DNA of 37,127 nt from an uncultured Alistipes sp. (GTDB taxonomy: Bacteria; Bacteroidota; Bacteroidia; Bacteroidales; Rikenellaceae): NCBI GenBank assembly GCA_944321765.1, contig CALUMQ010000021.1, positions 1-37,127 of the forward strand, written 5' to 3'. The notes under the pieces were generated by a model, which saw only the letters and a list, made by a program, of their open reading frames with translations, was not told where the DNA came from and ran no database searches. Below are positions 30,155 to 33,299 of this stretch, in pieces. The translations under genes and the position numbers were made by a program. Positions within the stretch are counted from its first letter, which is position 1. Every line of letters starts with the position of its first letter.

Positions 30155-31240
30155 CTACAATTCGCTCTCCTTCAGCCGCTCGGCATTCTCGGCAACGATC
30201 AGATGGTCGATGCAGTCCTGGATGTCGCCGTCCATGAAGGCCGCGAGGTTGTAGATCGTGTAGTTGATGCGGTGGTCGGTGATGCGTCCCTGCGGGTAGT
30301 TGTAGGTGCGGATCTTGGCCGAGCGGTCGCCCGTCGAGACCATCGTCTTGCGTTTCGAGGCTATTTCGTCGAGGTATTTCGAGTATTCGAGGTTGAAGAC
30401 GCGCGTGCGCAGCTCCTCGAAGGCCTTGTCGAAGTTCTTCAGCTGCGACTTCTGGTCCTGGCACTGCACGACGATGCCCGTGGGGATGTGCGTCAGGCGG
30501 ATGGCCGAGTAGGTCGTGTTGACCGACTGCCCGCCGGGTCCCGAGGCGCAGAAGATATCCTTGCGGATGTCGTTCATCGAGATCTCGACGTCGAACTCCT
30601 CGGCTTCGGGGAGCACGGCCACCGATGCTGCCGAGGTGTGGACGCGTCCCTGGGTCTCGGTCTGCGGCACGCGCTGCACGCGGTGCACGCCCGATTCGTA
30701 CTTGAGCGTTCCGTAGACGTTCTGCCCGGTGACCTTCATCACCACCTCCTTGTAGCCGCCGGCGGCACCCTCCGAGGCGGAGGTGATTTCGTATTTCCAC
30801 CCCTTCGACTCGATGTACTTGGTGTACATGCGCAGGAGGTCTCCGGCGAAGATCGCCGCCTCGTCGCCTCCCGTGCCGCCGCGGATCTCCACGATGGCAT
30901 TCTTCGAGTCCTGCGGATCCTTCGGGATGAGCAGCAGCTTGATCTCCTCCTCGAGTTGCGAGACCTGCGGTTCCAGTTCGGTGATCATCTCCCGGGCCAT
31001 TTCGCGCAGCTCCTCGTCCTTGTCGTTGGCGTAGGTGTCCTTCGCCTCGGCGAGATTCGCGAGGACCGTGCGGTAGCGCTCCGAGGTCTCGATGATCGGT
31101 TCGAGCTCCTTGTACTCCTTGTTGAGCTGCACGAACTGCTTCACGTCGGCGATCACTTCGGGGTCGGTGAGCTTCTGTCCGATCTCCTCGTACTTGAGCT
31201 TCAGCCCGTCGAGACGGGTGAGTATGGTGTTGTCTGCCAT
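30155..31240 (-). CDS. prfA: Peptide chain release factor 1
   Basis: The 361-residue factor ends translation at UAA and UAG. The codon-recognition tripeptide of the P-x-T type is PQT (192-194) in VPQTETQGRVHTSA, and the universal GGQ is at 236-238 (GPGGQSVNTT). The HMM-like N-terminal coiled region and RGGTGGDEA (120-128) are typical. The start at 31240 (MADNTILTRLDGLK) is used because a -7 box at 31271-31278 leaves no room for a longer form. The family's N5-methyltransferase gene is not adjacent. Confidence 0.96.
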   Translation of the reverse strand: MADNTILTRLDGLKLKYEEIGQKLTDPEVIADVKQFVQLNKEYKELEPIIETSERYRTVLANLAEAKDTYANDKDEELREMAREMITELEPQVSQLEEEIKLLLIPKDPQDSKNAIVEIRGGTGGDEAAIFAGDLLRMYTKYIESKGWKYEITSASEGAAGGYKEVVMKVTGQNVYGTLKYESGVHRVQRVPQTETQGRVHTSAASVAVLPEAEEFDVEISMNDIRKDIFCASGPGGQSVNTTYSAIRLTHIPTGIVVQCQDQKSQLKNFDKAFEELRTRVFNLEYSKYLDEIASKRKTMVSTGDRSAKIRTYNYPQGRITDHRINYTIYNLAAFMDGDIQDCIDHLIVAENAERLKESEL

Positions 31241-31245
31241 AAGAA

Positions 31246-31287
31246 AATGTATCGTATCCTGTTCAGCGTACAAAGATACGATACATT
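31246..31287 (-). promoter_or_regulatory. prfA promoter inside a 13-bp perfect inverted repeat
   Basis: The -7 box TATCTTTG lies at 31271-31278 (minus strand) and would start transcripts near 31266, about 26 nt before prfA. Arms AATGTATCGTATC (31246-31258) and GATACGATACATT (31275-31287) are perfectly complementary and separated by 16 bp. The right arm overlaps the -7 box and the left arm lies in the leader. This could be an operator or a leader structure. Confidence 0.6.
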
Positions 31288-31349: not shown

Positions 31350-31991
31350 TCAGAAGAGCTGGTATTCGAGGGTCACCGTTTCGAGTGAACCTTCGGAGTC
31401 CAAAGTATAGTTCGTTGCATACATTCGGATATAGACCTCTTCTCCTGTTTCTGTCGTAAGCATGATGACGTATCCGCAGCCGGGCTGGAATGGTGCATAG
31501 GCCATGCTGTATCTGTTGATCCCGCCGCTTTTCCATGAGTGAACGGAGCTGTTCGTCAATATATTACTCTTATAGGAGTCGGTTATATCCTTTATTGATG
31601 ATATGTCGAGCAGTTGAATGATTCCGGCTTTTTCTGATATATAACCATTGAGAATATTGAATTGCCCATTTTTCCTTGGGTAATATTTTAGACGAAATTC
31701 TCCTGCTTCTGTTGCAAGACGATAACGTACATTGAAGTCTTCGTATATGATATTACCTTCTAGCTCCTGTCTGTAATAGCGATAAGCATCACTATACGTA
31801 AAATTGTTGTAAGAGGCCGTATTGGTAAATGATCGCTGCTTAAGGTTTTGTGTGGCTATGTAATCCGTATTGCTTCCACTGTTGCCTCCATTTTCGCTGT
31901 TGCCTCCGTTCTCTTCCCCGTCATCCGAGGAGCATGCGGCAAGGGCAAATGCTAAGGCGATACCGCAAAGGACGAAAAGAAATTTTTTCAT
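31350..31991 (-). CDS. AT-rich putative lipoprotein of unknown function
   Basis: The 213-residue protein has a lipoprotein signal peptide with lipobox LAAC, Cys20 being the predicted lipidation site, followed by an acidic and Gly/Asn/Ser-rich linker (SSDDGEENGGNSENGGNSGS) with short internal repeats. The body is tyrosine- and asparagine-rich, with no recognised domain; alternating patterns such as YVIMLTTETGEEVYIRMYA suggest beta strands. Codon use is far more A/T-rich than in all neighbours, which points to transfer from another genome. The start at 31991 (MKKFLFVLCG) is fixed by the signal peptide. It has its own promoter and a roughly 300-nt structured leader. It probably sits on the periplasmic or outer face of a membrane. 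Confidence 0.75.
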   Translation of the reverse strand: MKKFLFVLCGIALAFALAACSSDDGEENGGNSENGGNSGSNTDYIATQNLKQRSFTNTASYNNFTYSDAYRYYRQELEGNIIYEDFNVRYRLATEAGEFRLKYYPRKNGQFNILNGYISEKAGIIQLLDISSIKDITDSYKSNILTNSSVHSWKSGGINRYSMAYAPFQPGCGYVIMLTTETGEEVYIRMYATNYTLDSEGSLETVTLEYQLF

Positions 31992-32205
31992 GACTGGCGA
32001 TTTTAAGAGTGATACCGGGATCCCCGCGGGCGATTGGACTGCTGTAGAGGTTGACGGACATGAAAAAAGCGTGGGACCCAACCCCGAATCCTACTCTTGG
32101 GTATCGCCAAACACCCTGCCACTGGATATACGAGTAAAGCCCACGCAAAAAGCGTGAGCGCAAATTCCGTTCTCCGTGGTGATAAAATTTGGCGATTTTA
32201 AGAGT
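31992..32205 (-). ncRNA. Candidate structured leader RNA with alternative pairings
   Basis: The leader of the lipoprotein gene carries motif ACTCTTAAAATCGCCA (minus-strand reading) at 32205-32190 and at 32010-31995, and an inverted form TGGCGATACCCAAGAGT at 32109-32093. The middle copy can pair with either outer copy (6+6 bp around an internal loop); the 3' copy ends 3 nt before the ATG at 31991. In addition GCGTGGG (32146-32140) can pair with CACGC (32156-32152) over a U5 loop, or with CCCACGC (32075-32069), which is followed by six T. The arrangement fits an attenuator or translation switch. It matches no RNA family I can name. Confidence 0.55.
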
Positions 32206-32397
32206 AGAGAATGAAAGTTCCGCTTTTTATGTCTTGCGCACGTGGCGCCGTCTGATTGGGTATGGGCTTATCTCATAGGCAAGGACGGGTTGTTGGATAG
32301 ACAAATATACGCAATATTCACGAAATGTCAATAATCCTGTCGCGATTGGGACGTTGATCGCTCCAAAGCCTTCTCTGTCGTGTTTCCCGCACCGTTG
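32206..32397. other. Noncoding stretch between esterase stop and leader element
   Basis: Apart from the promoter at 32302-32331 and the first, unstructured part of the leader transcript, I see no gene, repeat or clear terminator for the upstream esterase gene. Confidence 0.5.
32302..32331 (-). promoter_or_regulatory. Promoter of the lipoprotein gene and its long leader
   Basis: On the minus strand TTG (32331-32329) is followed after 19 nt by TATATTTG (32309-32302). This is a good match to the Bacteroidales -33 (TTTG/TTG) and -7 (TAnnTTTG) boxes at canonical spacing. The start would be near 32296, about 305 nt before the lipoprotein ATG. Confidence 0.65.
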
Positions 32398-33276
32398 TCA
32401 CCGGAGACGTCCGAGCCAGTCGAGCACCGCCCGCTGCCAGGCGGCCTTGTAGCGGAAGCCCTCGCCGATGCCCCATCCGTGGCCCCCTTCGGGATAGATG
32501 TGCATCGACGCCTCGATGCCGTGCTCCTTCAGGGCGTTGTAGTAGCGCGTGCTGCTGACGGGGGGAACGGTCGTGTCGTCGTCCGAGAGCAACAGCAGCG
32601 CCGGCGGCGTCTGCTCCGTCACGCGGTTCTCCAGCGAGTAGCGGGCATCGGTCTCGGCCGAGCGGTTCGCCTTGCCCACGAGCAGGTCGAACGATCCCTG
32701 ATGTCCGGGATGGGCCGTGATGACCGGGTAGAAGAGCAGCGAGAAGTCGGGGCGCACGGCTCCCATCGTCGAGGCCATCGCCGCGAGGTGTCCGCCGGCC
32801 GAGAAGCCCGCAATGCCTACCTGGCGGCAGACGTAGGCCTCGGCGCCCGGGGCGTCGCCGCGCAGCAGGCGCAGCGCCTGTTCGGCATCCTCGAGCGGCA
32901 CCTCCGGGTGTCCGTTGGGCATGCGGTACTTGAGCACCGCCGCCGTGATGCCGTTTGCGGCGAGCCACTGCGCCACCTCGTATCCTTCATAGTCGAAGGC
33001 CAGCACCGCGTAACCGCCGCCCGGGCAGATGACCACCCCCTGTCCGGTGGCTTTCGCCGTGTCGGCCGGGTAGATGTAGAGCTCGGCAACCGAGATGTTG
33101 GCGGGGCGGCAGGGCGCCACCTCCTCTTCGGGCGTGGTGATGCCGTTGCTGTGGGGCGCCGAGGCGTTGTCCCAGAGGCGGATCGTGGCGGCCTGCCCGT
33201 AATCCTGGGCCGCCAGGGAGGATACTGTCATGCTCATAAGCAGGAAAATCGTTGAAAACAGCAGGCTTCGGTTCAT
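32398..33276 (-). CDS. Exported alpha/beta-hydrolase, acetylxylan-esterase-like
   Basis: This 292-residue protein has a signal peptide at about 1-24 (LLFSTIFLLMSMTVSSLAAQ). The alpha/beta-hydrolase triad is visible: Ser159 in GIAGFSAGGH, an Asp within 232-234 (SDDDTTVPP), and His266 (PEGGHGWGIG); the oxyanion loop is CPGGGYAVLA (84-93). This layout is common in Bacteroidota carbohydrate esterases that remove acetyl or feruloyl groups, often called endo-1,4-beta-xylanase B or esterase/lipase. The start at 33276 (MNRSLLFST) is set by the signal peptide. It is 142 bp downstream of leuS and behind a hairpin, so probably a separate unit or weak read-through. The substrate is not known. Confidence 0.85.
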   Translation of the reverse strand: MNRSLLFSTIFLLMSMTVSSLAAQDYGQAATIRLWDNASAPHSNGITTPEEEVAPCRPANISVAELYIYPADTAKATGQGVVICPGGGYAVLAFDYEGYEVAQWLAANGITAAVLKYRMPNGHPEVPLEDAEQALRLLRGDAPGAEAYVCRQVGIAGFSAGGHLAAMASTMGAVRPDFSLLFYPVITAHPGHQGSFDLLVGKANRSAETDARYSLENRVTEQTPPALLLLSDDDTTVPPVSSTRYYNALKEHGIEASMHIYPEGGHGWGIGEGFRYKAAWQRAVLDWLGRLR

Positions 33277-33299
33277 AAGGGTTCGTGGTTTTTGGAAAT

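What the first reader, a model, noticed from the sequence alone, without database searches (positions are those of the whole stretch)
31992..32205. Leader RNA with two sets of mutually exclusive stems in front of a lipoprotein gene
Seen: three copies of a 16-17-nt motif (two direct, ACTCTTAAAATCGCCA on the minus strand; one inverted in the middle) spaced about 95 nt apart. The inverted copy can pair with the 5' copy or with the 3' copy, which ends 3 nt before the start codon. Separately GCGTGGG can pair locally (CACGC-U5-GCGTG) or over about 60 nt with CCCACGC, which is followed by six U. Inference: pairing with the 3' copy would close the translation start, pairing with the 5' copy would free it, and the long stem plus U6 could stop transcription. 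I know no named riboswitch with this layout.
Basis: partly seen in the sequence, partly recalled or inferred. Interest (0 to 1): 0.8.

Follow-up and report, generated by a model that had tools for sequence, protein, structure and literature searches.

The report
Widespread switch-like RNA leader in Bacteroidota
The stretch in front of this lipoprotein gene belongs to a large, apparently unnamed family of folded RNA leaders that gut and environmental bacteria place before genes for exported proteins, with a conserved either-or base pairing and often a tiny reading frame of one to a few codons near its start.

Summary
The segment is one copy of a structured 5' leader RNA (minus strand, about 32295-31992). 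A covariance model from 6 copies finds relatives in 134 of 151 genomes of the genus (Alistipes), 154 of 393 of the order and 39 of 345 of the phylum. No Rfam family reaches its cut-off. In 80 aligned copies 95.9% of cells pair and 30 of 34 pairs show compensatory change.

The either-or pairing holds: the right arm of the apical hairpin pairs locally or with CCCACGC just before U6; the long-range helix pairs in 99.1% of 560 cells. The other half of the reading fails: the third motif copy before the ATG recurs in 1 other of 167 copies and is not seen in the one homologous gene with this leader.

New: an upstream ATG motif, found in 107 of 148 copies, is followed by an in-frame stop after 0-4 codons in 101 (window: ATG AGA TAA). 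The gene behind usually looks exported: 111 of 128 against 256 of 679 control ORFs. Function is untested; I favour attenuation by the pseudoknot helix plus U-run.

The parts
32302..32309 (-). promoter-like -7 box TATATTTG (TAnnTTTG), 26 nt before the mini-ORF
   Evidence: sequence; TAnnTTTG lies within 160 nt upstream of the core in 115 of 148 copies, 11 after letter shuffling. Box consensus is also stated in PMC9723704 (passages)
32268..32276 (-). minimal upstream ORF ATG AGA TAA, preceded by GCCT
   Evidence: in-frame stop after 0-4 codons in 101 of 107 copies with the motif, other frames 22 and 33
32236..32248 (-). 5' hairpin GCGC-CACGT-GCGC (P0), weak in this copy
32211..32229 (-). small hairpin region around AAAAAGCGGAACTTTC (family consensus AAAGCGTTAGCTTT)
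   Evidence: alignments; not counted as a helix
32200..32206 (-). P1a, 5' strand TACTCTT (start of motif copy 1)
   Evidence: helix 1: 8 of 8 pairs with compensatory change, 98.3% of cells paired
32197..32199 (-). internal loop AAA, facing ACCC at 32102-32099
   Evidence: alignment consensus
32188..32196 (-). P1b, 5' strand ATCGCCAAA
   Evidence: helix 2: 9 of 9 pairs with compensatory change, 94.5%
32175..32179 (-). P2, 5' strand
   Evidence: helix 3: 5 of 5 pairs with compensatory change, 96.7%
32139..32159 (-). P3 apical hairpin GCTCACGC-TTTTT-GCGTGGGC
   Evidence: helix 5: 98.1% paired, 5 of 9 pairs with compensatory change
32119..32123 (-). P2, 3' strand
32103..32111 (-). P1b, 3' strand TTTGGCGAT (inverted motif copy)
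32092..32098 (-). P1a, 3' strand AAGAGTA
32069..32075 (-). strand S, CCCACGC, alternative partner (PK) of GCGTGGG 32146-32140
   Evidence: 99.1% of 560 cells paired, 24 cells changed on both sides against 8.8 in shuffles (0/500)
32063..32068 (-). U-run (six T)
   Evidence: T at 90% or more in the last columns of A6
32018..32024 (-). segment D, GGGATCC, can pair with GGGTCCC 32079-32073 (one G-U)
   Evidence: S:D complementarity in the family exceeds 100 of 100 permutations, but modestly (6.64 against 6.22)
31995..32010 (-). third motif copy, locus-specific duplication
   Evidence: downstream repeats of 16 nt or more in 2 of 167 copies
31353..31991 (-). downstream gene, orphan lipoprotein of 213 aa
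   Evidence: relatives at E<=1e-4 in 2 other genomes of 180 searched

Best explanation
SHOWN BY COMPARISON: this is the 5' leader of the lipoprotein mRNA and one copy of a family of structured RNAs spread over the phylum. Order: promoter box, often a mini-ORF, a 5' hairpin, a long interrupted stem (P1, P2) with a conserved AAA/ACCY internal loop, an apical hairpin P3, then strand S (UGUCCCACG) and a U-run, then the gene about 65 nt on. The right arm of P3 has two conserved, mutually exclusive partners: P3's left arm, and S. INFERRED: the RNA is a cis-acting switch. P3 forms first; when S emerges it can strip P3 and form the pseudoknot helix PK directly behind the polymerase and in front of the U-run, which would favour pausing or termination; whatever holds P3 or disturbs P1 would favour read-through. 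In copies with the mini-ORF, a ribosome starting and stopping there would sit on or next to the 5' hairpin and could bias the folding, so that the input would be the state of translation rather than a peptide sequence, since the peptides vary (MK, ME, MV, M and others). The locus-specific third copy is a leftover duplication, not part of the mechanism.
For: Structure: 80 copies, 95.9% of cells paired (shuffles 73.3), 30 of 34 pairs compensatory, 590 double-changed cells against 157.6. The alignment was fitted to P1-P3 but not to PK: PK 99.1% of 560 cells, 4 of 7 pairs compensatory (1/500 shuffles reach it), 24 double-changed cells against 8.8 (0/500), slid versions 34-70%. Sense-strand RNA: G-U against A-C cells 102:0 in PK, 121:1 in P3, 25:8 in P1 and P2 together, though a few columns carry most of the G-U. 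Balance: P3 -13.75 and PK duplex -12.6 kcal/mol (medians, 144 copies). Leader: ORF within 160 nt downstream on the same strand in 128 of 141 copies, 48 of 142 on the opposite side and strand. Exported: hydrophobic N-terminus 111 of 128 against 256 of 679; lipobox 58 of 128 against 45 of 679. Mini-ORF: stop after 0-4 codons in frame 101 of 107, other frames 22 and 33; promoter box a median 28 nt before it.
Against: No expression data. A nested terminator built on PK costs a median 15.7 kcal/mol, so termination needs a pseudoknot or a refolded P1, which is unusual. The consensus scan found only weak local terminator-like hairpins at the U-run, 2 against 0.6 in shuffles. The mini-ORF motif was not found in 41 of 148 copies and I do not see it in the homologous gene's leader L213. 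The window's own 5' hairpin and closing helix are short (4 and 5 pairs). Downstream genes share little but export: 115 clusters among the ORFs clustered, no common pathway, which does not suggest one metabolite. PK and P3 may coexist in turn without any signal.
Confidence: 0.45

Rival explanations
1. Riboswitch-like or protein-bound leader without termination: P1, P2 and the PK pseudoknot form an aptamer-like body, the U-run is structural, and output is on translation through strand S against segment D just before the gene.
For: P1 and P2 can stay formed while PK replaces P3; conserved internal loop AAA/ACCY and loop sequences; S:D complementarity above all 100 permutations, 6.64 against 6.22; nested terminator is costly.
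Against: S:D excess is small; segment D is not visible in all copies; 115 clusters of unrelated exported genes is an odd regulon for a metabolite.
Confidence: 0.27
2. Stabilising or general expression leader: the fold and a ribosome on the mini-ORF protect the 5' end of mRNAs of abundant exported proteins; there is no switching.
For: Attached to many unrelated exported genes; mini-ORF close to the inferred 5' end.
Against: It does not explain two conserved exclusive partners of one arm or the U-run placed directly after S.
Confidence: 0.15
3. DNA element: mobile or recombination-related hairpin (MITE, REP, attC-like, invertible segment) that happens to lie before genes.
For: Several copies per genome; the model also matches the antisense of many copies weakly; some copies lie near contig ends; P1 and P2 hold few G-U pairs.
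Against: Fixed strand and distance to the gene; G-U against A-C asymmetry; compensatory change; the apical pattern has 0 matches in viral contigs (exact pattern only). Target duplications were not tested.
Confidence: 0.05
4. One reading: copy 3 closes the translation start and copy 1 frees it.
For: Copies 1 and 3 are identical and both can pair with copy 2.
Against: A repeat of this kind in 2 of 167 copies; not seen in the homologue L213; the fold with copy 1 is the predicted one.
Confidence: 0.06

Closest known systems
Leader-peptide attenuators (trp, leu, erm leaders) and regulatory uORFs
   Same: Upstream ORF, then RNA with exclusive stems, one beside a U-run, before the regulated gene.
   Different: Here the ORF is mostly 1-3 codons and its peptide is not conserved, and the U-run helix is a pseudoknot partner of an apical hairpin. 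Leader types named from general knowledge.
Minigenes: two-codon ORFs such as that in the axe-txe toxin-antitoxin operon (PMC8708949, start of abstract seen; lambda bar minigenes recalled)
   Same: Translated unit of about two codons that influences expression of the gene behind it.
   Different: The axe-txe minigene lies inside an operon; here it belongs to a conserved structured leader in many genomes.
Flavo-1 RNA (RF01705)
   Same: Bacteroidota, many copies per genome, of unknown function (PMC2864571 and PMC9723704, passages).
   Different: 76-position model; no match in G000, G100 or G048; its hits in five relatives that carry R1 lie elsewhere among those listed.
Unnamed human-microbiome candidates of Fremin and Bhatt (PMC8040213; passages and section 8 read)
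   Same: Includes Bacteroidetes candidates readable on both strands and tagged as terminators, for instance HMP2_4205 (132 bp) and HMP2_1032 (106 bp).
   Different: Sequences are in supplements that I could not open, so identity is neither shown nor excluded.
Structured 5' regions of Flavobacterium psychrophilum (PMC9723704, section 19)
   Same: 64 structured 5' transcribed regions, some without Rfam match.
   Different: The named examples are biosynthesis, tRNA-synthetase and similar genes; the full list is in supplements not seen.

Membership tests
Any Rfam 15 family | covariance-model match at or above the gathering score | tested here: not met
   Window: 0 matches. 15 loci at E<=5 and 8 loci at E<=10: nothing over the cut-off on the element. 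Two sub-threshold overlaps: Acido-Lenti-1 on L003 (21.2 bits, cut-off 37, E 1.3) and Collinsella-1 on L012, opposite strand (16.8 bits, cut-off 35, E 3.4).
Flavo-1 (RF01705) | match to the Flavo-1 model at the R1 sites | tested here: not met
Leader-peptide attenuator | short ORF in the leader | tested here: met
   In-frame stop after 0-4 codons in 101 of 107 copies with the motif; motif absent in 41 of 148.
Leader-peptide attenuator | regulatory codons or conserved peptide | tested here: not met
   102 mini-peptides: MK 14, ME 10, MV 9, M 7, MI 6, then many single types.
Leader-peptide attenuator | exclusive stems, one ending at a U-run | tested here: met
   P3 98.1% and PK 99.1% of cells share the same arm; S is followed by the U-run.
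Leader-peptide attenuator | premature transcript ends at the U-run | not testable with these tools
   No transcript data on hand.
Intrinsic terminator | local G+C-rich hairpin directly before the U-run | tested here: inconclusive
   2 weak matches in the window region, 0.6 expected; the conserved partner is about 65-70 nt away.
Riboswitch | direct binding of a small molecule | not testable with these tools
   No ligand candidate; diverse downstream genes.
Mobile or repeat element (MITE, REP) | insertion without regard to gene strand and distance | tested here: not met
   128 of 141 against 48 of 142 in the control.
Mobile or repeat element (MITE, REP) | target-site duplication | not tested
   -

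The most novel reading that the evidence does not exclude
One RNA leader acts as a common, transferable operator for a large regulon of unrelated exported proteins and lipoproteins across Bacteroidota, reading the state of translation itself (initiation and termination on a start-stop mini-ORF whose peptide is irrelevant) and passing it on through a P3/PK pseudoknot switch at a U-run. That would be a new principle: attenuation without regulatory codons and without a ligand, used phylum-wide.
Probability: 0.2. Interest if true: 0.92.

Novelty: new variant of a known kind. Interest (0 to 1): 0.74.

Why it matters
If right, a leader RNA present in 134 of 151 Alistipes genomes and in 97 of 207 genera sampled in the order sits before genes for exported proteins of gut bacteria and has no Rfam entry. 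It offers a test of how these bacteria, which are known to use few Shine-Dalgarno signals (stated in PMC9723704, passage), couple translation to expression of surface proteins. The start-stop mini-ORF makes the question experimentally sharp: change one start or stop codon and read the reporter.

Tried and rejected
Rejected: (1) a private curiosity of this locus: only copy 3 is. (2) Flavo-1: other loci. (3) The idea that contig-end copies mean an insertion sequence: among 20 stretches, G297's two copies proved to be paralogues, 85% over 841 nt; other contig-end copies were not explained and no transposase search was made. (4) Fold energy as evidence: z -1.73. (5) A second group of relatives (L006-L021) first looked like reverse-complement matches; the model matches 12 of 14 on the strand with promoter and ORF at 30-47 bits (L011 and L020 missed), no higher than antisense self-matches of other copies, so their kinship is likely but not as firm. 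(6) Second weak homologue of the lipoprotein (L214): no R1 match. (7) Papers: searches listed none that describes this leader; two papers have supplements that may contain it, not seen.

Rows dropped before counts: 245 model matches became 195 after removing overlapping antisense duplicates, 179 after identical cores, 167 after setting aside 12 of the second group, 148 after near-duplicates. Pairing tests used 144 of 148 (no clear U-run or hairpin in 4). The downstream test used 141 with at least 200 nt. The 80 copies come from 77 sources that I chose to limit redundancy, E<=1e-7. Searches scored at most 18, 6 and 7 candidates a genome, so copy numbers are lower bounds; their thresholds differ (0.01, 1e-4, 1e-5).

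Full report
WHAT IS IN THE WINDOW. The finding is on the minus strand, between a hydrolase-like gene (32398-33297) and an orphan lipoprotein gene (31991-31353) that is followed by the release-factor gene prfA (31273-30155). All repeats and stems described are present at the stated places, and the 16-nt direct repeat is beyond chance (longest 13 in 2000 simulated sequences). The best fold joins copies 1 and 2 in a long interrupted stem capped by the 8-bp hairpin, but energy alone does not prove structure (10 of 200 shuffles as good).

RELATIVES. A nucleotide search of the genus found several short matches. Six copies of the same layout gave alignment A1 and model R1, 173 positions and 34 pairs, 14 with compensatory change. 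R1 finds 134 of 151 genomes of the genus, 61 of 61 of the well-completed ones; 154 of 393 of the order, 97 of 207 genera; 39 of 345 of the phylum. The window's own genome, 88.6% complete, has one copy. Named carriers include Alistipes muris, Dysgonomonas, Parabacteroides and Prevotella isolates and many MAGs.

STRUCTURE. In 80 selected copies, 95.9% of 2635 cells pair, 30 of 34 pairs change on both sides somewhere, and 590 cells are double changes against 157.6 in shuffles; slid controls pair 35-41%. This alignment was fitted to these stems. The long-range helix PK was not in the model: 99.1% of 560 cells pair, 24 double changes against 8.8 (0/500), 4 of 7 pairs compensatory against 1.9 (1/500). 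Over 144 non-redundant copies the arm and strand S form 6 or more pairs in 140, and true partners exceed permuted ones (7.69 against 7.45, 0/100). P3 and PK use the same arm, so they exclude each other. One pair of P3 is a U-G in 76 of 80 copies, where PK makes G-C; the two helices are nearly equal in energy, -13.75 and -12.6 kcal/mol. G-U far outnumbers A-C in P3 (121:1) and PK (102:0) and moderately in P1 and P2 (25:8), which points to RNA of the sense strand; a few conserved wobble columns carry much of this.

FURTHER ALTERNATIVES. Sequence right after the U-run is complementary to the 3' arm of the 5' hairpin: 72 of 144 copies reach 7 pairs, 36.7 expected (0/300); in the window the best run is 5. 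Strand S is complementary to a segment just before the gene, 6.64 against 6.22 (0/100). These are weaker than P1-P3 and PK.

MINI-ORF. A motif G[CT][CT][TAG]ATG lies upstream of the core in 107 of 148 copies; the ATG meets a stop in frame after 0-4 codons in 101 of them, against 22 and 33 in the other frames. For GCCTATG alone it is 81 of 84 against 17 and 26. Other ATGs in the region do so in 108 of 243. The peptides are short and varied. A promoter box TAnnTTTG precedes 81 of 102 mini-ORFs, median distance 28 nt. In the window: box 32309-32302, ATG AGA TAA 32276-32268. The motif is missing in 41 of 148 copies, so it is common but not universal.

DOWNSTREAM GENES. 128 of 141 copies have an ORF starting within 160 nt on the same strand, median 64.5 nt; 111 have a hydrophobic N-terminus and 58 a lipobox, against 256 and 45 of 679 other ORFs in the same loci. 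The opposite side and strand gives 48 of 142 and 10. These are rough rules, not a signal-peptide predictor. The ORFs fall in 115 clusters; of 57 scanned, the commonest Pfam families are DUF6567 and PEGA, 4 each. A few are not exported, for example a resolvase.

THE THIRD COPY. The longest exact repeat between the P1 region and the 170 nt downstream is 16 in the window and 32 in L105; the next is 11, as in the reversed control. The one clear homologue of the lipoprotein with a leader (G069, 41% identity, R1 47 bits) has changed P1 letters on both sides and no third copy in the stretch before its ATG by eye. So the proposed closing of the start codon by copy 3 is at most a local addition.

MECHANISM. 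The family is a leader RNA with an either-or helix beside a U-run; that much is shown by comparison. That PK promotes pausing or termination and P3 prevents it is inference from placement. A simple nested terminator is unlikely (15.7 kcal/mol cost), so a pseudoknot, or P1 disrupted by a ribosome or protein, is needed. The mini-ORF suggests that translation is an input; its varied peptide argues against classical codon sensing. Rivals are an aptamer-like leader acting on translation and a stabilising leader.

KNOWN OR NEW. No Rfam 15 family reaches its cut-off; Flavo-1 lies elsewhere. Eight text searches listed no paper describing it. Mass predictions in PMC8040213 and PMC9723704 may contain parts of it in supplements that I could not open, so priority is open. 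As a kind it is a cis-regulatory leader; the combination of start-stop mini-ORF, P3/PK exclusion and attachment to many unrelated exported genes I have not met.

Noticed in passing
L006, L007, L009-L011, L013-L021: A second, more uniform group of leaders in Alistipes with promoter, 5' hairpin, long stem, apical GTGTGGG arm and downstream CCTCACAC/CTCCACAC plus T-run; a later hairpin loop GGAGTYG seems to covary with CRACTCC. Probably a subfamily; no mini-ORF seen.
   Followed up: partly
L105 (element 2537-2709, repeat about 98 nt downstream): A 32-nt direct repeat of part of the leader downstream, the only other copy with such a duplication.
   Followed up: no
L128: A contig labelled uncultured Bacilli scores the same as an Alistipes copy (143.7 bits, L097), so it is probably mis-binned.
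   Followed up: no
P1 and P2 of A6: Few G-U pairs (25 of about 1675 cells) although compensatory changes abound; unusual for an RNA and unexplained.
   Followed up: partly
window 30155-31273 (minus): The leader-bearing lipoprotein gene is followed by prfA, release factor 1; probably coincidence.
   Followed up: no
L095, L088, L132; L079: Leader copies in front of resolvase-like genes and of an MBOAT acyltransferase gene rather than small exported proteins.
   Followed up: no
L181, L184 and other copies near contig ends: Copies in draft genomes often lie within 1 kb of a contig end; paralogous genes explain one case, the rest are open.
   Followed up: partly
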